Numbered from the stretch's first letter, positions 54,343-63,860 are shown. The stretch is 64,000 nt of DNA from Akkermansiaceae bacterium (GCA_019634595.1 JAHCBC010000001.1:868001-932000); one strand, 5' to 3'. The notes: generated by a model from the letters alone, not told the origin. Program-made: numbers and translations.

Positions 54343-54482
54343 AAATTCCGTTGTCCCTCCGCGCCGCCATTTCCCCTTGCAGGGGGCCTTCTTCCTCTTC
54401 CTATCCACCATCAACCGGATCACTTTCTCCCTTCCCTCCGCCCCTGAAAACTGAACACTGGAAACTAACAAACTTTCTTCCC

Positions 54483-56933
54483 ATGAGCATCACCCCCGCC
54501 GACTACGAGAAACTTGGCCAGTTCTACCTCGGAAAAGAATACGACCCCGCCACCCGCGCCGTCACCGATGACCTCGTGCTCTACGATTCCAAGGACCTCG
54601 TGACCCACGGCGTCGTCCTCGGCATGACCGGCTCCGGAAAGACCGGCCTCTGCCTGGCCCTGCTGGAGGAGGCCGCCATGGACAACATCCCCGCCATCAT
54701 CATCGACCCGAAGGGGGACATCTCCAACCTCCTGCTCACCTTCCCGGAGCTGGACGCCGCCAGCTTCCGCCCGTGGATCAATGAGGACGATGCCGCGAAG
54801 AAAGGCCTCTCGCCGGATGACTTCGCCGCGAAGACCGCGGAGGGCTGGAAAAAGGGCCTCGCCGACTGGGGGCAGGAGCCGGACCGCATCCGCCAGTTCC
54901 AGGAAAAGGTGGACATCAACATCTTCACCCCCGGCAGCAAGGCGGGCATCCCCGTGTCCATCCTCAGCTCGCTGGAGGTCCCGCCGGACGAGATCCTGGA
55001 GGACGGGGAGCTGTTCAGCGAGCGCGTGGAAAGCACCGTTTCCTCGCTCCTTTCGCTCGTCGGCGTGAATGCGGACACCGCCCAGAGCCCGGAGGCCGTG
55101 CTGCTGGCCGCCATTTTCCAGAATGCCTGGCAGAAAGGGCAGGGGATCACCCTGGAAAAGCTCATCGGTTCGATCCAGAAGCCCGCCTTTGACAAGATCG
55201 GCGTCATCGACCTCGCCTCCTTCTTCCCGGAGAAGAAGCGCCAGGACCTCGCGCTGAAGTTCAATACCCTCCTCGCCTCGCCGGGCTTCGCTTCATGGCT
55301 GGAGGGCGTCCCGCTGGACATCTCCGACATGCTGAAGACCCGCGCCGGAAAACCGCGCATCTCCATCTTTTCCATCGCCCACCTCGGCGATGCGGAGCGC
55401 ATGTTCTTCGTCTCGCTCCTGCTGAACCAGACGCTCGGCTGGATGCGCACCCAGACCGGCACCACCTCCCTGCGGGCGCTGCTCTACATGGATGAGATCT
55501 TCGGCTACCTGCCGCCGTCCGCCAACCCACCGTCGAAGCGCCCGATGATGACCCTGCTGAAGCAGGCCCGCGCCTTCGGCCTCGGCTGCCTCCTCGCCAC
55601 CCAGAACCCAGTCGATCTCGACTACAAGGCGCTCTCGAACATCGGCACCTGGTTCCTCGGCCGCCTCCAGACGGAGCGGGACAAGCTCCGCGTGCTGGAT
55701 GGCCTGGAAGGCGCCGCCGGCTCCCAGAACGCGCAGTTCGACCGCAAACAGATGGAAACCCTCATCTCCGGCCTCGGCAACCGCGTCTTCCTCATGAACA
55801 ACGTCCATGACGATGCACCCACGCTGTTCCACGTCCGCTGGGTCATGTCCTACCTCACCGGCCCGCTCGCCCGCGCCCAGATCAAGTCCCTCATGGACCC
55901 GAAGCGCGGGGAGTTCGCCGGCATCGGCGGCCCCTCCGGGAAGTCCTCCTCCGCCCCGGACGATGGCGGGATGCCAGGCATGCCCGGCCTCACTCCCTCC
56001 GCTCCGGAGAAGACCGGCGGTGCCCGGCCCATCGTCGGTGCCGGGGTGAAGGAGATCTTCGCCCCGCTCACCGGCCCCGCGGAGGAGACCACCTACGCGC
56101 CCCACCTCCTGCGCACCGCCACCGTCCATTTCTCCTCCACCAGGATGGGCGTCGAGGGCAGCCGCACCGTCCGCTTCGTCAATCCCATCCTTCCAGACAA
56201 GATCGACTTGGCCGTCAATCTCCCGCCGCCCCTGAAGCTGGACACCGGAAACTCGCAACCTGCCGATGGCGCGGGCTTCCGCGAACTCCCCGGCTACGCG
56301 ATGAATGCGGCCAACTACAAGCAGGTGGAGAAAACCTTCGCCGAGGAACTCTACCGCACCCAGCGCGCCGAGGTCTTTTCCTGCCCCGCGCTCAAGGCCT
56401 TCTCCAACATCGGCGAGACCGAGGGCGATTTCCGCGCCCGCCTCCACCTCCAGGCCCGCGAGGCACGGGACACCGCCGTCCAGAAGCTCCGGGACGCCGC
56501 CGCCAAGCGGATCGCCACGCTGGAAGGCCAGCTCCGCACCGCCGAAGGCCAGCTCGACCGCCAGAAGGCCGAGTCAAACGCCGCCAAGCTCAATGCCGGC
56601 GTCTCCGTCCTCGGTGGCATCCTCGGTGCCGTCCTCGGCAAGAAGGGCAGGGGAACCGGCCTCGGCTCCATCACCCGCGGCTCCTCCGCCATCAGCAAGG
56701 GTGCCTCCGCCTACAAGCAGATGCAGGACGTCTCCGCCGCCGAAGCCAAGGTGGAGGGGGTGGAATCGCAGATCGAAGCGGTTCAGAAGGATCTGGAGGC
56801 CCAGGCGGCGCAGATCGCTTCCCAGTACGATACGAACAATCTGTCGCTTGAAACCGAGTCGCTCAAGCCAACCAAGACGGATGTAAAGGTGGAGCTGGTG
56901 GCGCTGTTGTGGGTGCCTGTCTTAGGCGGATAA
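54483..56933 (+). CDS. HerA-like DUF87/DUF853 ATP-binding protein
   Basis: An 816-residue ATPase. Walker A is GMTGSGKTG (residues 47-55), followed by IPAIIIDPKGDISNLLL. A Walker B-like segment is RALLYMDEIFGYLPP, and the sensor-like LLATQNPVDLDYKALSNIGTWFLGRL and HVRWVMSYL are also present. The C-terminal quarter has a coiled-coil stretch (residues ~670-720, RDAAAKRIATLEGQLRTAEGQLDRQKAES) and a Gly-rich loop. Related proteins are FtsK/HerA-type ATPases. Codon use is like the core genome, not like the AT-rich island that begins immediately after the stop. The substrate is unknown. Confidence 0.85.
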   Translation: MSITPADYEKLGQFYLGKEYDPATRAVTDDLVLYDSKDLVTHGVVLGMTGSGKTGLCLALLEEAAMDNIPAIIIDPKGDISNLLLTFPELDAASFRPWINEDDAAKKGLSPDDFAAKTAEGWKKGLADWGQEPDRIRQFQEKVDINIFTPGSKAGIPVSILSSLEVPPDEILEDGELFSERVESTVSSLLSLVGVNADTAQSPEAVLLAAIFQNAWQKGQGITLEKLIGSIQKPAFDKIGVIDLASFFPEKKRQDLALKFNTLLASPGFASWLEGVPLDISDMLKTRAGKPRISIFSIAHLGDAERMFFVSLLLNQTLGWMRTQTGTTSLRALLYMDEIFGYLPPSANPPSKRPMMTLLKQARAFGLGCLLATQNPVDLDYKALSNIGTWFLGRLQTERDKLRVLDGLEGAAGSQNAQFDRKQMETLISGLGNRVFLMNNVHDDAPTLFHVRWVMSYLTGPLARAQIKSLMDPKRGEFAGIGGPSGKSSSAPDDGGMPGMPGLTPSAPEKTGGARPIVGAGVKEIFAPLTGPAEETTYAPHLLRTATVHFSSTRMGVEGSRTVRFVNPILPDKIDLAVNLPPPLKLDTGNSQPADGAGFRELPGYAMNAANYKQVEKTFAEELYRTQRAEVFSCPALKAFSNIGETEGDFRARLHLQAREARDTAVQKLRDAAAKRIATLEGQLRTAEGQLDRQKAESNAAKLNAGVSVLGGILGAVLGKKGRGTGLGSITRGSSAISKGASAYKQMQDVSAAEAKVEGVESQIEAVQKDLEAQAAQIASQYDTNNLSLETESLKPTKTDVKVELVALLWVPVLGG

Positions 56934-56970: not shown

Positions 56971-58014
56971 TTAAATTGTACCATTGTTATCTAGCCATTG
57001 GAAATCTCGTCCAATCAACAGTTCAGTCATTTTGGCATGATGCGTACTTTTCATTGCAACAGGCCTAGACTCAAAATTAAATTCGGCAGCTAACGCGGAA
57101 ATTTCAGGAGTGTTATCGTAAGTCATTAAGAAGTCCCCTTTGCATTTTTGCAGACCTTCAAATAGTTGGCGATGATCAATCTCCCATTTTGTATACAACC
57201 GTTTGGCTGCAATAGTGTAGGGTGGGTCGATGAAAAAGACGGCATTTTTATCATTCTTTAGGCGATGCAAAAGATCAAATGCGTCGCCTTCAATAAAAGT
57301 TAGTCTATTCCTTAAATGATATATCTCTCGAATTCGTCGAGCGAGTGTTTCTGGGTACCAACGAGATTTAAGTCCACGTCCATTTTCACCTGCCTTGACT
57401 AAGCCCGCGCCTGGAGCCATGATCCCACCACGTTGCACTCGATTGCGAATAATGGTTTGAAATGCCCTTTTTTGAACGGCTTTTGAGGAGGAATCTAAGA
57501 TTTTTCGGACATTGTTCATTGAAAGGTCAAAACGTAAAATTTCTTTAGCGAGCCACTCCGCATGCTCGCTTAACATCACCTTCCAGACCGCAGCGATATC
57601 CGCATCGAGTTCCGAAAATATGACATCTTTAGCAAGCTTTTCGAATGCCACTGTTAGGCTCATAATCCCTCCCCCTGCGAAAGGTTCAATAAAACGATCA
57701 GGTAATTCTGGCTTGCTGAGAAGCCAGTCTCGAAGATAGGGAACGAACCAGGTTTTTCCTCCCGGATATCTAAATGGGCTGCGCTGAGGAACGCTAGCAA
57801 CATTCACTGGTTTCCTGGCGTCATAATGGACGCGGCGAGGGGGGCTTGTTTCCAGAAATAATCCTTCAGCTTCTTCTCTAACGCGGAAGCTTCCGAATGC
57901 GTCAAGACGGTGCGCGACGTCGAGGAGTGCGTCCGCTATTTTCTCGGGGACTCGGATTACGGTTGTTTTGCCGGAATTCCATTTTCGAGGATAGGTGGTA
58001 GATGAGCGCCCCAT
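56971..58014 (-). CDS. Dam-type N6-adenine DNA methyltransferase with extra N-terminal segment
   Basis: A 347-residue D12-class adenine methyltransferase. The entry motif is FRYPGGKTWFVPYL (residues 81-94), motif I is FIEPFAGGGIMSL (108-120), and the catalytic DPPY is in FFIDPPYTIAAKRLY (262-265). The ~70 residues before the domain are additional; KTTVIRVPEKIADALLDVAHRLD is reminiscent of a ribbon-helix-helix DNA-binding unit. The gene is AT-rich and divergent from the NotI-like gene with a 25-bp palindrome between. It should protect host DNA against the endonuclease if the two share a site, which is unproven. Confidence 0.88.
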   Translation of the reverse strand: MGRSSTTYPRKWNSGKTTVIRVPEKIADALLDVAHRLDAFGSFRVREEAEGLFLETSPPRRVHYDARKPVNVASVPQRSPFRYPGGKTWFVPYLRDWLLSKPELPDRFIEPFAGGGIMSLTVAFEKLAKDVIFSELDADIAAVWKVMLSEHAEWLAKEILRFDLSMNNVRKILDSSSKAVQKRAFQTIIRNRVQRGGIMAPGAGLVKAGENGRGLKSRWYPETLARRIREIYHLRNRLTFIEGDAFDLLHRLKNDKNAVFFIDPPYTIAAKRLYTKWEIDHRQLFEGLQKCKGDFLMTYDNTPEISALAAEFNFESRPVAMKSTHHAKMTELLIGRDFQWLDNNGTI

Positions 58015-58053
58015 GAATGAATGATGATGAGATGTGGAGCTGGTGTCAACCCT

Positions 58054-58078
58054 GTAACAGGGAAAATTTCCTTGTTAC
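58054..58078. promoter_or_regulatory. 25-bp near-perfect palindrome, likely operator of the restriction-modification locus
   Basis: Between the divergent methyltransferase (start 58014) and NotI-like gene (start about 58161) lies a 25-base palindrome. Its outer six bases are GTAACA/TGTTAC and its inner arm is GGAAA/TTTCC. Eleven of twelve arm pairs match. It sits exactly where an operator that controls both genes is expected. Restriction-modification loci are often controlled by a C protein or by the methyltransferase itself. No C gene is seen, so the extra N-terminus of the methyltransferase is the candidate binder (inference). Confidence 0.6.
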
Positions 58079-58160
58079 GAAAAACCATTTTTTCGTTGGA
58101 TCTGGCCCAAATTTAGGTAATCTGCTTTTTAAGCTGGCTCTGTTAGTTCGTATATCGAGA

Positions 58161-59003
58161 ATGGGAGCTATGGCGTTTAAGATTACGGAGGTCTTCGGCT
58201 ATTCTGTCGAGGATACTAGCCCGGAAGCCCTAAGATCTCGGATCGAAAAACCGTGTCCATTTCAAACGGCGGGAACTCGATGCACCAAGGTATCGATTTC
58301 AGATCCATTGGGTGTGTGTATGTTTGGTGATTCTCACGTAGGAACACCAGTGTGTCCTGTCCGTTTCATCCAAAATAACCAGATGTTTGTGGATGTCGCT
58401 AGATTGGCGTTTGGAAGAGATAAAAAAATTGTGATAAGGCCTGAGCTCAGAATACTTCGCAAGGAGAACGGAAAAAAAGCAGGCAAAGTGGATTACATTA
58501 TTGCCGCAGTTGGGTCGGAGGGGCGACCATCTGATTTCTGCGCGTTAGAAGTGCAGGCGGTATACGTTTCGGGGAGTTCTTATTACCCTTTATTCCGGGA
58601 TTTTCTTGCGACTGGAATCCCTCCGGAGCAATATAGAGGGATGGACTGGCTTTCTAGTCGAAAGAGGTTGATTTATCAGCTTAATCTCAAAGTTCCAGTG
58701 TTTCGGCGTTGGGGTAAGAAGTTTTTCGTTGCAGTAGACCGTCAATTTTTTAATGCGCTTCCTCAAATGAAGAGGGTTCAGGATATTGAAAATAGTGAGG
58801 TGACATGGGTTCTGTATGATTTTAAGAAAGAGGGTGTGAATACTGGATTTGGAATCAGTCCTCCTGAGTTTTATTTTACTGAGTGGGCTGATGTCGAAGT
58901 GGCTTTGCGTGAAGGCGTGCCTCCTCGCCAACAAGAGATCCTTGATGATGTTTACTCGGCGATGATCAGGAGGAGATTTCCTCTGCCTGTATTTGATATA
59001 TAA
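58161..59003 (+). CDS. NotI-family type II restriction endonuclease
   Basis: About 280 residues, AT-rich. The N-terminal ITEVFGYSVED corresponds to NotI IAEFFGH. It is followed by four Cys (32, 41, 53, 65) in PCPFQTAGTRC, LGVC and TPVCPV, matching the NotI iron-binding cluster. The catalytic set is Asp111 (KVDYIIAAV), Glu130 and Gln132 (CALEVQAVY), corresponding to NotI Asp160/Glu182/Gln184. The length is shorter than NotI (383). Starts at 58161 and 58170 are both possible; an upstream ATG at 58017 is unlikely because it precedes the palindrome. It is the first gene of the + strand island operon, 18 bases before the ParB-like gene. Confidence 0.82.
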   Translation: MGAMAFKITEVFGYSVEDTSPEALRSRIEKPCPFQTAGTRCTKVSISDPLGVCMFGDSHVGTPVCPVRFIQNNQMFVDVARLAFGRDKKIVIRPELRILRKENGKKAGKVDYIIAAVGSEGRPSDFCALEVQAVYVSGSSYYPLFRDFLATGIPPEQYRGMDWLSSRKRLIYQLNLKVPVFRRWGKKFFVAVDRQFFNALPQMKRVQDIENSEVTWVLYDFKKEGVNTGFGISPPEFYFTEWADVEVALREGVPPRQQEILDDVYSAMIRRRFPLPVFDI

Positions 59004-59021
59004 TAAAAAAGATTTCAAAAA

Positions 59022-60140
59022 ATGAATTTTAATTCACTTGATATCCCTTCTGAAAGATTGCTTTTGGATCCTAATAATTATCGGTTTCATGATTTGGCGA
59101 CTTATCGTCCTGTTCCTAATCATGCTAGATATCCTGAGGGGGGTGTGCAAGAGCGTGCTTTGGCTCTCCTACAGACTACGGATTCTTTCGATCTTGAAAG
59201 TTTGAAAGATTCTATTACGTCAAACACTTATGTTCCATTGGAGCGAGTTGTGGTAGAACTGTTTGATGGTGAGGGTGAGGAAGCGCGCTACCTCGTGGTG
59301 GAGGGTAATCGTCGTGTTGCTGCGGTTAAAACTTTACTTGCGGAGCAGGCTGCAGGGTCCGCTGATATCCCTGAGGCAACTCTCTTGAGTATCGCTACGA
59401 TACCTTCTATCGAAATCACGGGTACCCCTGAGGAACGGCATGCCTATAAGCAGAAACTTATGGCAATTAGGCACGTTGCTGGAATCAAAGAGTGGGGTCC
59501 ATATCAGCAAGCTAAATTGGTGGTGGAGCTCTATGAGCAAAATCAAAATTTTAGCCTGGTGGCTCAGGAGATCGGTATCACCTCCCGAGAGGTGGCTCGA
59601 CGTTATCGGGCAAGTAAAGCTCTCCAGCAGATGGAAGAGGATGAAGAAATGGGAGAGTACGCTAGCCCTAAGCTCTATGCGCTCTTTCATGAAGCTATGG
59701 CCCAACCGCTAATTCGCGAATGGCTGGGATTTTCAGATATCTCTTTTACCGCTGTTAACGAAGAAAACCGAGAAGCATTTTATGAGCTTTTAAGTCCTAG
59801 GTCTTTTGAGGGTGAAACATTACCCCCTAAGCTATCAACGGCTCGCCACGTCCGAGCCATTCGAAGTATCGTAAATCATCCAACCGCTTTGGCCACGCTA
59901 TTAGAACCGGAACGGTTGTTAGAGGATGCTATTCGTGAATCGGAAGTGGAAAATACCCCCGATGATCAAGCGGCTGGAGAGAGGGCGCTTTCACAAGCTT
60001 TGCGTGCTTTGAGGCTGCCTGGCTTCGACGTCTGGTTTGATCCTACTGCACGGGCACGAATTTTATTTTCTGAATTGAGGACACTCGTGGACCGCCTTAA
60101 CACCGTGATGCCTAATGTAACTCTCCCGCCAGGAGAATGA
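59022..60140 (+). CDS. ParB/Srx-fold-like protein with helix-turn-helix
   Basis: A 372-residue protein. Residues 57-105 fit the ParB N-terminal/Srx-like fold: DLESLKDSITSNTYVPLERVVVELF, then YLVVEGNRRVAAVKTLL, with GNRR at 95-98 as the ParB nucleotide-binding box. A helix-turn-helix follows at about 178-199 (SLVAQEIGITSREVARRYRAS). ParB proteins centre DNA segregation, but this fold also appears in phosphorothioate and other defence systems. No ParA is present. The stop overlaps the next gene start by four bases, and it follows the NotI-like gene by 18 bases, so the three are one operon. Confidence 0.78.
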   Translation: MNFNSLDIPSERLLLDPNNYRFHDLATYRPVPNHARYPEGGVQERALALLQTTDSFDLESLKDSITSNTYVPLERVVVELFDGEGEEARYLVVEGNRRVAAVKTLLAEQAAGSADIPEATLLSIATIPSIEITGTPEERHAYKQKLMAIRHVAGIKEWGPYQQAKLVVELYEQNQNFSLVAQEIGITSREVARRYRASKALQQMEEDEEMGEYASPKLYALFHEAMAQPLIREWLGFSDISFTAVNEENREAFYELLSPRSFEGETLPPKLSTARHVRAIRSIVNHPTALATLLEPERLLEDAIRESEVENTPDDQAAGERALSQALRALRLPGFDVWFDPTARARILFSELRTLVDRLNTVMPNVTLPPGE

Positions 60141-61009
60141 ATCTTATCGATTTATTAGAGCGAGTTGAGTGCGTCATTGGTCTTCAGGGGCATCCGCGAA
60201 CTCTTCGGCAAGTTTTGGAGGCCGAAATGTTGGGATATTTCGGACTGCTCCCTATTCACGCTGCAGAGCAAGCAGAGGCCTTTGAAAAGCGGATTCAGCA
60301 ACGTATAGTTGAGAAACAGCGGGAGATGGAATCTACCGGTGTGATCCCAGTAGTGGTGTTGCATCATGCAAACAATAGAAGAGTTGTAGGTTCTTGTTGG
60401 ATCGATCCTGATGATGATGAAAGTGTCGTCGCTGCAAAGCAGGGAAGGGCTTGGGCGGGTCAAATTCTTGAAGCCCTTCGGCAATTGACCCCGGAGGAAT
60501 TTGAGAAATTCGGGTCAAGAATCCTCAAGGAATTGGGGGCGGAGCAAGTCAGGGTTACGCGACGATCTGGCGACAATGGTGTGGATTTCTATGGTTACTT
60601 GTCATTGGGGGGAGTTATGATGCATCCACCTGCTATTTGCCAGCTTGCTCATAATATTCAGCTCTTATTTGCTGGGCAGGCCAAACACTATCCTAACAGC
60701 GCTATTGGTCCTTCAACTATACGCGAAATGATTGGTGCGATAGCGCTTGCAAGATTCAGTGTTTATTCTTCGGATCCAGATTTTTTCGAGGAGTTCAAGC
60801 TCCTTCCCTATAATCCCCTCCTGGCATTGGTTTTCACCACAGGGCGTTTTACAAAAGGGGCATTGGAGATTGCTAATGCGGCAGGTGTGATTGCACGTTC
60901 AGGAATTCAACTTGCTATCTTTCTGGCAGATCGCAATGTTGGAATAGTAAAAGAAGGGGGGATTGCTACTTTCGTGCCGGAGCGCTTCACAGACTGGTTA
61001 AATGACTGA
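60137..61009 (+). CDS. Mrr-like restriction endonuclease
   Basis: A 290-residue protein. From residue 117 it has the Mrr-cat core: LTPEEFEKFGSRILKELGAEQVRVTRRSGDNGVDFYGYL (Asp150), then LLFAGQAKHYPNSAIG (Gln181 and Lys183, the Q-x-K catalytic pair). The later motif IREMIGAIALARFSVYSS and LVFTTGRFTKGALEIANAAG belong to the Mrr fold. Its ~115-residue N-terminus is unlike known partners. Mrr-type nucleases cut modified or foreign DNA. Coupling to the ParB-like gene suggests that the ParB-like protein selects the target and this protein cuts (inference). Confidence 0.82.
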   Translation: MNLIDLLERVECVIGLQGHPRTLRQVLEAEMLGYFGLLPIHAAEQAEAFEKRIQQRIVEKQREMESTGVIPVVVLHHANNRRVVGSCWIDPDDDESVVAAKQGRAWAGQILEALRQLTPEEFEKFGSRILKELGAEQVRVTRRSGDNGVDFYGYLSLGGVMMHPPAICQLAHNIQLLFAGQAKHYPNSAIGPSTIREMIGAIALARFSVYSSDPDFFEEFKLLPYNPLLALVFTTGRFTKGALEIANAAGVIARSGIQLAIFLADRNVGIVKEGGIATFVPERFTDWLND

Positions 61010-61100: not shown

Positions 61101-62795
61101 TCACCACCCCGCCGCCTTGCCCTTCACCCGCGGATCACTCGCCCCACCAAAAGAGCCGCCATCTTTCCCGACGATCTGGGAGACGCCGAAGGTATCCACG
61201 GGCTGGAGCTTGTGGCCTTTGGCGCGGAGTTTTTCCTGAATGGCCTTCGGCAGCGAATTCTCCACGCGGAGGGTGTCGGGTGCCCATTGGTGGTGGAAGC
61301 GAGGGCGGGCGAGGGCTTCCTTCAGCGGCAGCTTGAGATCGATGACGCTGATGAGATTGAGCACGGTCTGGCTGATGATGGTGGGGCCGCCGGCGGCGCC
61401 GAGGGAGAGGAGGGGATTTCCCGCGGGATCGAGGACGATGGTGGGGCTCATGGCGGAGAGCGGGCGCTTGCCGGGCTCGACCTTGTTCGCGTCCCCGCCG
61501 ATGAGGCCGAAAGCGTTCGGCACGCCGGGCTGGATGGAGAAGTCATCCATCTCGTTGTTCAGCAGCACGCCGGTGCCGGGGACGATGACCTTGCTGCCGT
61601 AGGTGGTGTTGATGGTGGCGGTGATGGCCACCCAGTTGCCCTCGGCATCCGCCGCGGAGAAGTGGGTGGTGTGCTTGCCGAAGACATTCGTCTCCCACTC
61701 CGGCGGCAGCCCGTGCTTCGCCACCGGCATCGCCCGCGCGGGGTCGATCCGCCTTGCCAGTTCCTTGCCGTAGGAGGCATCCGCGAGGCCCTTCGGCACC
61801 TTGGTGAAATCCGGATCGCCCAGCCAATGGGCGCGGTCGGCGAAGGCCAGCTTCATCGCCTCCGCGATGGTGTGGATGCGGTCCGCCTCCTCCATCCCGG
61901 CGAGGTCGAAGTTCTCCACGATGTTGAGGATCTGCGCGACATGGACGCCGCCGGAGCTGGCGGGCGGGAAACCATAGATCCGGTGGCCGCGGTAAGTGGA
62001 CACCACCGGCTCGCGCAGCTTGATCGAGTAACCGGCGAAGTCGGCGGCGGTCATGATGCCGCCGTTTTCCTTCATCCACGCGCCGATCTTTTCCGCGACG
62101 GGGCCTTTGTAGAAATAGTCCGGTCCCTGGTCCGCGATGCCCTGGTAGGTGGCGGCGAGATCACCCTGGACCAGCAAGGTCCCGGCGGGGTGGGGCTTTC
62201 CATCGGCATCCAGGAACACCTTCCGCGAGCCGTCGAATTTCCGCAGGTCCTCCACGTTGCGCGTGAGCTTCCGGACCTCCGCATCGCCGATGCGGTAGCC
62301 ATCCCGCGCGGCACGGATACCCGGCGCGAGGTGCTCCGCGAGCGGCTTTTTCCCGAACTTCGCCACGGCATGCGCATACGCCGCCAGTGCTCCCGGCACG
62401 CCGGACGCCAGCGCGCCCGTCTGGCTCAGGTTGGTGTCCGCCTTTCCATCCACCAGATACATGTCCGGCCGCGCCGCGGCGGGGGCCATCTCCCGGCCAT
62501 CGATGGCATGCACCGTTCCATCCGCCAGCCGGATGAGGATGAAGCAGCCGCCGCCGATCCCGGAGTTCGACGGATCCACCACGCCCAGCGTCAGCCCCGC
62601 CGTGACGGCGGCATCGATGGCATTGCCACCGGATTTCATGATCTCCACCGCCGCATCCGTGGCGATGGGGTGGACGGTGGCCACCACGCCTTTGGTGAAA
62701 ACGGCCGCTTCCTTTCCATGGACAGGCAGGAGCGTGGCGGCGAAGACGGCGAGGTGGGAAAGACGGAACATGGCGGAGGAATGGCTTTGCGTCAT
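61101..62795 (-). CDS. ggt: Gamma-glutamyltransferase
   Basis: 564 residues. The proenzyme contains GVVATVHPIATDAAVEIMKSGGNAIDAAVTAGLTLGVVDPSNSGIGGGCFILI. The autocatalytic cleavage and nucleophile Thr are in FGKHTTHFSAADAEGNWVAIT. The small-subunit part has LLNNEMDDF, GKRPLSAMSPTIVLD and a GAAGGPTIISQTVL end. It cleaves glutathione and other gamma-glutamyl peptides, in the periplasm judging from the signal peptide at MFRLSHLAVFAATLLPVHG. Start codons at 62795 and 62771 are both possible. It returns to GC-rich core sequence directly after the island. Weak SD site. Confidence 0.93.
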   Translation of the reverse strand: MTQSHSSAMFRLSHLAVFAATLLPVHGKEAAVFTKGVVATVHPIATDAAVEIMKSGGNAIDAAVTAGLTLGVVDPSNSGIGGGCFILIRLADGTVHAIDGREMAPAAARPDMYLVDGKADTNLSQTGALASGVPGALAAYAHAVAKFGKKPLAEHLAPGIRAARDGYRIGDAEVRKLTRNVEDLRKFDGSRKVFLDADGKPHPAGTLLVQGDLAATYQGIADQGPDYFYKGPVAEKIGAWMKENGGIMTAADFAGYSIKLREPVVSTYRGHRIYGFPPASSGGVHVAQILNIVENFDLAGMEEADRIHTIAEAMKLAFADRAHWLGDPDFTKVPKGLADASYGKELARRIDPARAMPVAKHGLPPEWETNVFGKHTTHFSAADAEGNWVAITATINTTYGSKVIVPGTGVLLNNEMDDFSIQPGVPNAFGLIGGDANKVEPGKRPLSAMSPTIVLDPAGNPLLSLGAAGGPTIISQTVLNLISVIDLKLPLKEALARPRFHHQWAPDTLRVENSLPKAIQEKLRAKGHKLQPVDTFGVSQIVGKDGGSFGGASDPRVKGKAAGW

Positions 62796-62844
62796 TAGAC
62801 CGCCGGGAGAGCGAATGTGCAAGGGGAGGGGCGCGCTCCGATGG

Positions 62845-62869
62845 GTAGCGTCGTGGCTGCGCCATGACG
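62845..62869 (+). repeat. REP-like palindrome, copy 1
   Basis: GTAGCGTCGTGGCTGCGCCA followed by TGACG forms a stem-loop centred on CTGCG. It is the first of three near-identical 25-base copies between ggt and the tRNA-Ser gene (others at 62989-63013, inverted, and 63190-63214). Confidence 0.65.
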
Positions 62870-62988
62870 GCTGGGCAAGCGCACCATTGCCCTGCCACTC
62901 CACCTCGAATGGATGGCATCAAACGGACACCTGATCGGAGAGGCCCGGAGAGATTCGGAATCGAAAGAGGGTGGTGAAAATTCCCCAC

Positions 62989-63093: not shown

Positions 63094-63170
63094 GGAGCGG
63101 TAGCTCAGTTGGTTAGAGCGCCAGCCTGTCACGTTGGAGGTCGCGGGTTCGAGCCCCGTCCGCTCCGCCA
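63094..63170 (+). tRNA. tRNA-Asp (anticodon GTC)
   Basis: A complete 77-base tRNA with acceptor stem GGAGCGG/CCGCTCC, D arm AGCTCAGTTGGTTAGAGC, anticodon stem-loop CCAGC-CTGTCAC-GTTGG (anticodon GTC), T arm CGGGTTCGAGCCCCG and encoded CCA at 63168-63170. Confidence 0.97.
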
Positions 63171-63189
63171 TCCCTGTTCTTCGCCCCCC

Positions 63190-63214
63190 GTAGCGTCATG
63201 GCTGCGCCATGACG
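63190..63214 (+). repeat. REP-like palindrome, copy 3
   Basis: GTAGCGTCATGGCTGCGCCA followed by TGACG, differing from copy 1 by one base. Arms CGTCATGGC and GCCATGACG pair perfectly around TGC. The rest of the 234 bases between tRNA-Asp and tRNA-Ser shows nothing further. Confidence 0.65.
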
Positions 63215-63404
63215 GGTGTGCGGATGGGTGCGATCTTGCGATCCGTTATTCCACGGATGTCTCCTTTTGGATGCAGCTTCGCCACGGGTGATGAGTTCAC
63301 CCCCAGGATGGCCCAGCCACATTTCCTTGGCTCCGCCGGGCACACAAATTGAGAGAACACTTTACAACCAGAGCGCGGTTGCTAACTTCCGCGTCCCGGA
63401 GAAA

Positions 63405-63494
63405 GGAGAGGTGGCTGAGTGGTCTAAGGCACCCGATTCGAAATCGGACGTGGGGTAATACTCACCGTGGGTTCAAATCCCACCCTCTCCGCCA
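63405..63494 (+). tRNA. tRNA-Ser (anticodon CGA)
   Basis: A 90-base class II tRNA with a long variable arm. Acceptor stem GGAGAGG/CCTCTCC, anticodon loop TTCGAAA (anticodon CGA), variable arm around TGGGGTAATACTCACC, T arm GGGTTCAAATCC and encoded CCA. It is followed directly by TTTTTG. Confidence 0.95.
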
Positions 63495-63668
63495 TTTTTG
63501 TTGGATCGCGTGCCTGCGTGATGGAGCGGATGACGCTCCAATTCTTACCTCCATCGCCCGATTCAGACGCTGCTGGGGAAAAGATTGGATCGGTTGAATT
63601 TCCCTGTTGCCAAACCCGTCGGTCGCAGCATAATTTCTGCCCGCCGCGAGGCCGAAAGGCTTCGGAAA

Positions 63669-63739
63669 AGCCTCATAGTGTAACGGTAGCACACCGGATT
63701 TTGATTCCGTTCGCCTAGGTTCGAATCCTAGTGAGGCTA
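63669..63739 (+). tRNA. tRNA-Gln (anticodon TTG), CCA not encoded
   Basis: A 71-base tRNA: acceptor AGCCTCA/TGAGGCT, D arm TAGTGTAACGGTAGCAC, anticodon stem-loop CCGGA-TTTTGAT-TCCGT (anticodon TTG), T arm CTAGGTTCGAATCCTAG. The discriminator A at 63739 is followed by CTT, so the CCA must be added after transcription, unlike the other three tRNAs of the window. Confidence 0.95.
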
Positions 63740-63860
63740 CTTTTCCGATCGCTCCCAACAACCGATGTTGGTTTCAGAGCAAGCGGCGATCACGGGGTCC
63801 ACGATAGACTCGTTTTTTGTGCCCGGACTCCTCGCTCCGCTGCAAAGTCTGACTTGAGCC

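What the first reader, a model, noticed from the sequence alone, without database searches (positions are those of the whole stretch)
56971..61009. AT-rich defence island: adenine methyltransferase, NotI-like endonuclease, ParB-like and Mrr-like proteins
Four genes sit in a block whose base composition differs sharply from the GC-rich core on both sides (58441-58500 has 25/60 G+C, 55501-55560 has 41/60). They combine a divergent Dam-type methyltransferase with an operon of NotI-like endonuclease, ParB-like and Mrr-like proteins. I do not know of a described system with this set. The Mrr-like protein and the NotI-like enzyme may be two effector arms of one module, with the ParB-like protein as a recognition or nucleotide-dependent clamp. 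Transfer into this genome is supported by composition; the combined function is inference.
Basis: partly seen in the sequence, partly recalled or inferred. Interest (0 to 1): 0.85.

Follow-up and report, generated by a model that had tools for sequence, protein, structure and literature searches.

The report
R-M pair beside ParB-like/Mrr nuclease module
A small foreign-looking island carries an ordinary restriction-modification pair (adenine methylase plus NotI-type cutter) next to a widespread, apparently undescribed two-gene unit in which a ParB-like nucleotide-switch protein is paired with a DNA-cutting enzyme, probably to destroy phage or other foreign DNA.

Summary
In detail: four intact genes (56971-61009) lie in a 46% GC block inside 63% GC flanks. 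Congeneric genomes sampled lack the island.

It is not one four-gene machine but two separable modules. (1) A D12 adenine methyltransferase and a NotI-family endonuclease, divergently transcribed, form a recurrent Type II R-M pair: the same two genes are adjacent in 6 of 7 methylase-bearing genomes of the phylum, 11 of 14 viral contigs and a Thermus plasmid. (2) A ParB/Noc/KorB-fold protein and an Mrr-type PD-(D/E)XK nuclease form a tight, co-diverging pair (26 loci in at least eight bacterial phyla plus an archaeal MAG; Mantel r 0.93), usually with no methylase nearby. A sister class pairs the same ParB-like family with another nuclease-like protein and does carry a methylase (98 of 109 loci, against 2 of 26; p 5e-16).

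All four genes stand in the same order, under strong purifying selection, in one other genome, an uncultured Pedosphaera, where synonymous sites are saturated.

I found no description of the ParB-like/Mrr pair. Best reading: a two-subunit, NTP-gated restriction module working like GmrSD/SspE (ParB-fold NTPase plus nuclease) with an Mrr-type nuclease. Defence function and mechanism are inferred, not shown.

The parts
56971..58014 (-). D12-class N6-adenine DNA methyltransferase (347 aa), partner of the NotI-like enzyme; carries an extra ~70-aa N-terminal extension shared with L036 and not seen in the other NotI-linked methylases aligned
   Evidence: PF02086 9.2e-14; 48-54% identity to NotI-linked methylases (A3); tree clade 100/100
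58044..58079 (.). Operator-like conserved noncoding element in the divergent methylase/NotI intergenic region: TGTCAACCCTGTAACAGGG-N-TCCnTGTTACG, with near-perfect palindrome CCCTGTAACAGGG at 58050-58062
   Evidence: 19 consecutive identical bp with L036 where synonymous sites are saturated; the exact palindrome occurs once in the 5.09 Mb genome
58170..59003 (+). NotI-family Type II restriction endonuclease (277 aa from the probable start); catalytic D at 58491-58493, E at 58548-58550, Q at 58554-58556; four cysteines kept
   Evidence: PF12183 1.8e-38; alignment A4; profile matches solved NotI 3bvq (E 0.0068)
59022..60140 (+). ParB-like protein (372 aa): ParB/Srx nucleotide-binding fold with GNRR P-motif (residues 95-98, nt 59304-59315), HTH domain, helical C-terminus
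   Evidence: AF2 model pLDDT 91.4; Z 10.6 to KorB, 9.9 Noc, 9.3 ParB; profile hits Noc 7ol9 1.6e-5; invariant EGNRR in 28 aligned sequences
60137..61009 (+). Mrr-type PD-(D/E)XK nuclease (290 aa) with a distinctive helical N-terminal domain (residues 1-105); catalytic E123, D150 (60584-60586), Q181xK183 (60677-60685). Start overlaps the ParB-like stop by 4 bp (ATGA)
   Evidence: PF04471 1.4e-12; residues invariant in 24 aligned sequences; AF2 pLDDT 89.4; Z 13.5 MspJI, 12.8 AspBHI

Best explanation
The island is a horizontally acquired defence cassette of two modules. Module 1 is a Type II R-M system: the adenine methylase protects host sites and the NotI-type enzyme cuts the same sites when unmethylated (target sequence unknown; it must contain an adenine). 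Module 2 is a two-subunit restriction unit: the ParB-like protein binds DNA through its HTH and a nucleotide through its GNRR pocket and, on recognising non-self DNA, recruits or licenses the Mrr-type nuclease, which cuts it. Because the Mrr-type version almost never has a methylase nearby and its nuclease domain is closest to the modification-dependent enzymes MspJI and AspBHI, I think it most likely attacks abnormal or modified invading DNA (Type IV-like, as GmrSD and SspE do with a ParB-fold NTPase plus an HNH nuclease), not unmethylated sites. Shown: gene content, folds (predicted), intact catalytic motifs, conserved and co-diverging pairing, two classes. Inferred: nucleotide binding, complex formation, DNA cleavage, anti-phage role and the basis of self/non-self discrimination.
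For: Pairing: the gene directly after the ParB-like gene is the Mrr-like one in 26 loci and a different nuclease-like family (c1) in 109; median gaps 0 and -1 bp. Distances of the two proteins co-vary (Mantel r 0.93, none of 9,999 permutations). Reciprocal search from the Mrr side found L255, again with the ParB-like gene upstream. Control: 25 other Mrr_cat genes in 388 genomes of the phylum have no ParB-like neighbour. Folds. Class split in methylase linkage: 98/109 v 2/26. NotI/methylase pairing. Purifying selection on all four genes (pS 0.85-0.91, pN 0.13-0.21). Defence-type settings of relatives: P2 prophages between portal and replication gene A, the position known as a defence hotspot (PMC9519451); next to Type II and other restriction-type genes in L052 and L063. 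Analogy: ParB-fold plus HNH in SspE/DndI/GmrSD (PMC11662687, PMC12839542).
Against: No experiment shows that any of these genes restricts anything. Most stand-alone ParB-like/Mrr pairs sit among housekeeping genes, not in dense defence islands. The sister class is methylase-linked, which suggests that ParB-like/nuclease units can act on unmethylated DNA, so the Type IV reading may not hold for this locus. No modified-base reader was recognised in the nuclease's N-terminal domain, which few of the matched structures cover. ParB-fold members bind CTP, ATP or GTP, and which one cannot be predicted (PMC12704722).
Confidence: 0.6

Rival explanations
1. One integrated R-M system with two restriction arms: the methylase protects the host from both NotI and the ParB-like/Mrr nuclease, which cut the same unmethylated sites by different routes.
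For: All four genes stand in the same order in window and L036, conserved at saturated synonymous divergence. NotI, ParB-like and Mrr genes look like one operon here (18-bp gap, then 4-bp overlap). NotI-partner methylases also occur with a ParB-like/c1 pair and no NotI (L100, L108; fragmentary c1 in L107). The sister class is methylase-linked in 98/109 loci. NotI also lies near ParB-like genes in L078/L085 and L184.
Against: 24 of 26 Mrr-type pairs have no C5 or D12 methylase of the clusters found within 4.5 kb. NotI/methylase pairs usually lack the ParB-like gene. The association in window and L036 may be one event.
Confidence: 0.22
2. Abortive or guardian unit: the ParB-like/Mrr pair senses R-M failure or host DNA perturbation and kills the cell by DNA cleavage, like Abi modules attached to R-M systems.
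For: The ParB-like family is also fused to an OLD/AbiL-type ATPase with a DUF3226 partner (PDC-M38), and PD-lambda-5, which shares the N-terminal domain and a D12 methylase, was described by its discoverers as a compacted RM+Abi system (PMC9519451).
Against: Stand-alone occurrence without an R-M system; no antitoxin-like partner beyond the ParB-like protein itself.
Confidence: 0.12
3. Not defence: a DNA maintenance, partition or plasmid-competition function of a mobile element, with the ParB-like protein as a segregation-type clamp.
For: Strong fold match to KorB, Noc and ParB.
Against: No parA neighbour in the island; the constant partner is a nuclease; relatives occupy the P2 defence hotspot and pair with methylases.
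Confidence: 0.06

Closest known systems
NotI-family Type II R-M pairs with an adenine methylase (e.g. Thermus brockianus plasmid L021; L032; L223)
   Same: Same two protein families, adjacent; L032 and L223 are also head-to-head; NotI catalytic D..ExQ kept
   Different: The window copy also sits beside the ParB-like/Mrr pair, has an extra methylase N-terminus and a conserved operator-like palindrome
GmrSD / SspE / DndI (ParB-fold DUF262 NTPase plus DUF1524 HNH nuclease)
   Same: A ParB/Srx-fold NTPase working with a nuclease to restrict DNA (works like)
   Different: Here two separate proteins, ParB-type with an HTH, and an Mrr-type PD-(D/E)XK nuclease; no DUF262 or HNH detected
PD-lambda-5 (Vassallo 2022)
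   Same: N-terminal ParB-like domain in the A protein; D12 methylase as B
   Different: The A protein models are mostly 430-600 aa with another C-terminus, directly beside the methylase in the loci seen; here a 372-aa protein is paired with an Mrr nuclease, and the methylase pairs with NotI
PADLOC candidate PDC-M38
   Same: Its N-terminal ~310 residues are homologous to the ParB-like protein (3e-47)
   Different: There fused to an OLD/AbiL-type ATPase and followed by a DUF3226 protein; neither is present here
MspJI / AspBHI modification-dependent endonucleases and Mrr
   Same: Nuclease domain fold and catalytic motif (Z 13.5 and 12.8)
   Different: No base-recognition domain detected; recognition is presumably left to the ParB-like partner

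Membership tests
Type II R-M of the NotI family | Endonuclease of PF12183 with D..ExQ catalytic residues and conserved cysteines | tested here: met
Type II R-M of the NotI family | Adjacent cognate methylase, recurrent in other genomes | tested here: met
   6 of 7 methylase genomes of the phylum and 11 of 14 viral contigs have NotI adjacent
Type II R-M of the NotI family | Cleavage and methylation at the same specific site (GCGGCCGC for NotI itself) | not testable with these tools
   needs methylome or cleavage assay; an adenine methylase implies a different site from NotI
GmrSD/SspE/DndI Type IV-like restriction | ParB/Srx-fold NTPase domain | tested here: met
   predicted fold only: Z 8-10 to ParB/KorB/Noc, 3.9 to SspE; nucleotide binding itself not tested
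GmrSD/SspE/DndI Type IV-like restriction | DUF262 plus DUF1524 HNH nuclease | tested here: not met
   no such Pfam hit in any of the four proteins; nuclease is Mrr type
PD-lambda-5 | Full-length A protein (about 430-600 aa) beside the B methylase | tested here: not met
   only an N-terminal stretch matches A models; methylase adjacent to NotI instead
PDC-M38 | ParB-like domain fused to AAA ATPase (A) plus DUF3226 protein (B) | tested here: not met
   372 aa, ends before the ATPase part; no B gene
ParABS ParB / Noc | ParB fold with GxxR P-motif and HTH | tested here: met
ParABS ParB / Noc | parA partner gene | tested here: not met
   no ParA-like ORF in the island or its flanking genes (by reading)
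Mrr (Type IV) | Mrr catalytic domain with D..QxK | tested here: met
   PF04471; D150, Q181, K183 invariant
Mrr (Type IV) | Mrr_N winged-helix DNA-binding domain | tested here: inconclusive
   no Pfam hit to residues 1-105; matched structures mostly start at 106
MspJI/AspBHI | SRA-like modified-base recognition domain | tested here: inconclusive
   not among Pfam hits; structure rows mostly cover 106-290 only

The most novel reading that the evidence does not exclude
ParB-type clamps define a previously unrecognised restriction class: one ParB-like recognition/loading protein with exchangeable effectors (Mrr nuclease without a methylase; c1 nuclease with a C5 or adenine methylase; OLD-type ATPase/DUF3226), in which an NTP switch closes the clamp on non-self DNA and licenses cleavage away from the loading site.
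Probability: 0.3. Interest if true: 0.85.

Novelty: new variant of a known kind. Interest (0 to 1): 0.6.

Why it matters
It links the ParB nucleotide switch, known mainly from chromosome segregation, to a constant nuclease partner in many phyla. A recent survey of ParB-fold diversity (PMC12704722) reports domain fusions, and its main text does not mention Mrr. The split between a methylase-bound and a methylase-free class of the same recognition protein gives a direct, testable handle on how self and non-self are told apart, and the modules are small enough (about 2 kb) to test in E. coli.

Tried and rejected
Four genes as one obligatory module: rejected as a general rule. Membership of PD-lambda-5 or PDC-M38: rejected. 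Chromosome-partition ParB: no parA, constant nuclease partner. Mobile-element boundaries: no convincing flanking direct repeats found; the empty site could not be shown because the downstream flank gene was found in no other sampled congener, although the upstream HerA-like gene is followed by other genes in five congeners. Palindrome as a genome-wide parS-like site: rejected, the exact site occurs once. Homology of c1 to the Mrr-like protein: suggestive only (hhalign E 4e-4, probability 35%, with aligned D..GQ[AC]K motif). Mrr-like protein alone in viral contigs and plasmids gave nothing useful. No ParB-like/Mrr or ParB-like/c1 fusion among fetched ORFs. Literature searches found no description of the pair, but only open-licence papers are held.

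Full report
WHAT IS THERE. The window lies in contig C1 (868001-932000) of a 5.09 Mb genome. Between a HerA-like ATPase gene (54351-56933, Pfam DUF87/HerA_C) and an ORF on the minus strand that reads as a gamma-glutamyltransferase (61101-62903, by eye) lies a block of 46.2% GC in 63% GC surroundings with four open genes: D12 adenine methylase (minus), NotI-like endonuclease, ParB-like protein and Mrr-like nuclease (all plus). The NotI start is better placed at 58170 by alignment. NotI stop to ParB-like start is 18 bp; ParB-like and Mrr-like overlap by 4 bp, so the three plus-strand genes look like one operon. In the three congeners of the phylum sample the ParB-like gene, NotI and the NotI-type methylase were not found, and in five other congeners the conserved upstream HerA-like gene is followed by other genes. 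I infer recent acquisition.

MODULE 1: AN R-M PAIR. The methylase is 48-54% identical to methylases encoded next to NotI-like genes elsewhere. NotI and this methylase type are adjacent in 6 of 7 genomes of the phylum that carry the methylase, in 11 of 14 closely related viral-contig cases (some of these contigs are near-duplicates) and in a Thermus brockianus plasmid. L032 and L223 show the same head-to-head layout. NotI catalytic residues D159, E178, Q180 (numbering from 58017) and four cysteines are kept in the window copy, and the family profile reaches the solved NotI. This is an ordinary Type II R-M system of unknown specificity.

MODULE 2: A PARB-LIKE/NUCLEASE PAIR. The ParB-like protein has no Pfam hit, but its model (pLDDT 91) matches KorB, Noc and ParB over both nucleotide-binding and HTH domains (Z 10.6, 9.9, 9.3) and EGNRR is invariant across 28 aligned sequences, consistent with the GxxR P-motif described for this fold (PMC12704722). 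The Mrr-like protein has invariant E123, D150, Q181 and K183 and its residues 106-290 match MspJI (Z 13.5) and AspBHI (Z 12.8). A genome-collection scan and a viral scan with the ParB-like alignment gave 160 loci. The next gene downstream on the same strand is the Mrr-like family in 26, another nuclease-like family (c1, about 310 aa, invariant E..D..Q) in 109, and a DUF3226 protein in 6, where the ParB-like protein is as a rule fused to an OLD/AbiL-like ATPase (PADLOC PDC-M38). In several of the 19 others the contig ends or c1 is fragmentary. The ParB-like and Mrr-like distances co-vary (Mantel r 0.93). Searching from the Mrr side found L255, again with the ParB-like gene upstream, whereas 25 other Mrr_cat genes in the phylum have no ParB-like neighbour. 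Titles of the Mrr-type records point to Verrucomicrobiota, Pseudomonadota, Acidobacteriota, Actinomycetota, Chloroflexota, Bacteroidota, Balneolota, Omnitrophota and a Nitrososphaerota archaeon (phylum names partly from my own knowledge of the genera; many are MAGs).

TWO CLASSES. Methylases of the C5 or D12 type lie within 4.5 kb in 98 of 109 c1 loci but in 2 of 26 Mrr-type loci (Fisher 4.5e-16; genome loci only, 27/35 v 2/25, 7e-8). Loci are not phylogenetically independent and prophage loci are over-represented, so the p-values overstate. A survey of 90 neighbours of the Mrr-type pairs gives mostly housekeeping families, with Type II genes in L052 (C5 methylase plus BsuBI/PstI-type endonuclease) and restriction-type genes in L063. 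Among c1 loci, P2-like prophages such as L119 carry ParB-like, c1 and a C5 methylase between the portal gene and replication gene A, the known P2 defence hotspot (PMC9519451).

HOW THE TWO MODULES RELATE. L036 (uncultured Pedosphaera) has all four genes in the same order and strands; protein identities are 69-80%, synonymous sites are saturated (pS 0.85-0.91) and nonsynonymous change is low (pN 0.13-0.21), so each gene is under purifying selection. A 19-bp block with the palindrome CCCTGTAACAGGG and a following TCCnTGTTACG are conserved in the methylase/NotI intergenic region; the exact palindrome occurs once in the genome. I infer an operator controlling the divergent promoters. In the methylase tree the NotI-partner clade (20 rows, 100/100) also contains methylases that sit by ParB-like genes without NotI (L070, L100, L107, L108), and the window and L036 methylases group with L108 with moderate support (91/92). 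So the same methylase lineage can partner NotI, a ParB-like/nuclease pair, or, here, stand beside both. This keeps the two-arm rival alive.

MECHANISM. Inferred: the ParB-like protein provides DNA recognition and an NTP-driven conformational switch; the Mrr-type protein cuts. Known ParB-fold plus nuclease restriction factors are GmrSD, SspE and DndI (PMC11662687, PMC12839542). Because Mrr-type pairs seldom have a methylase and their nuclease resembles modification-dependent enzymes, targeting of modified or otherwise abnormal DNA is my first choice; methylase-protected restriction is the main rival. Nothing here demonstrates activity.

NOVELTY. No PADLOC system, Pfam family or held paper that I found describes the ParB-like/Mrr pair. 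Subscription literature, preprints and newer defence catalogues were not available, so prior description cannot be excluded. I rate it a new variant of a known kind (ParB-fold NTPase plus nuclease restriction).

Noticed in passing
window 57790-58014 (-): The methylase has a ~70-aa N-terminal extension (KTTVIRVPEKIADALLDVAHRLD...) shared with L036 but not with the other NotI-linked methylases aligned; it looks ribbon-helix-helix-like by eye, has no Pfam hit, and could repress the divergent promoter at the conserved palindrome.
   Followed up: partly
L119 5980-8923 and many of L119-L195: ParB-like, unnamed nuclease-like c1 protein and convergent C5 methylase form a three-gene unit in P2-like prophages between portal and replication gene A; one of 5,426 E. 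coli genomes has a close copy (NZ_AP027679, annotated ParB/Srx, hypothetical, cytosine methylase).
   Followed up: partly
L072 5977-9493; L019 5758-9016: Three tandem ParB-like paralogues in a row, in L019 beside a helicase, an ATP-binding protein, a radical SAM protein and a DGQHR protein; unexplained.
   Followed up: no
L184 5875-10222: A viral contig carries ParB-like, c1, a C5 methylase and a NotI-like gene together: another case of NotI beside a ParB-like unit, with a different nuclease and methylase class.
   Followed up: partly
L078 and L085 5194-9187; L107 5902-8426: ParB-like genes beside NotI-type methylases (with NotI in L078/L085) where the c1 nuclease is missing or only fragmentary (traces in L078 and L107), as if decaying.
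   Followed up: partly
L108 8945-10045: A GAF-domain protein with a weak TIR-like match follows the ParB-like/c1/methylase unit.
   Followed up: no
L027 192-2422: A protein with a DGQHR motif (DndB-like, by eye) lies directly upstream of a ParB-like gene.
   Followed up: no
window 63094-63740: Three tRNA genes (Asp, Ser, Gln) lie 2-3 kb downstream of the island; no repeat tying them to an integration event was found.
   Followed up: partly
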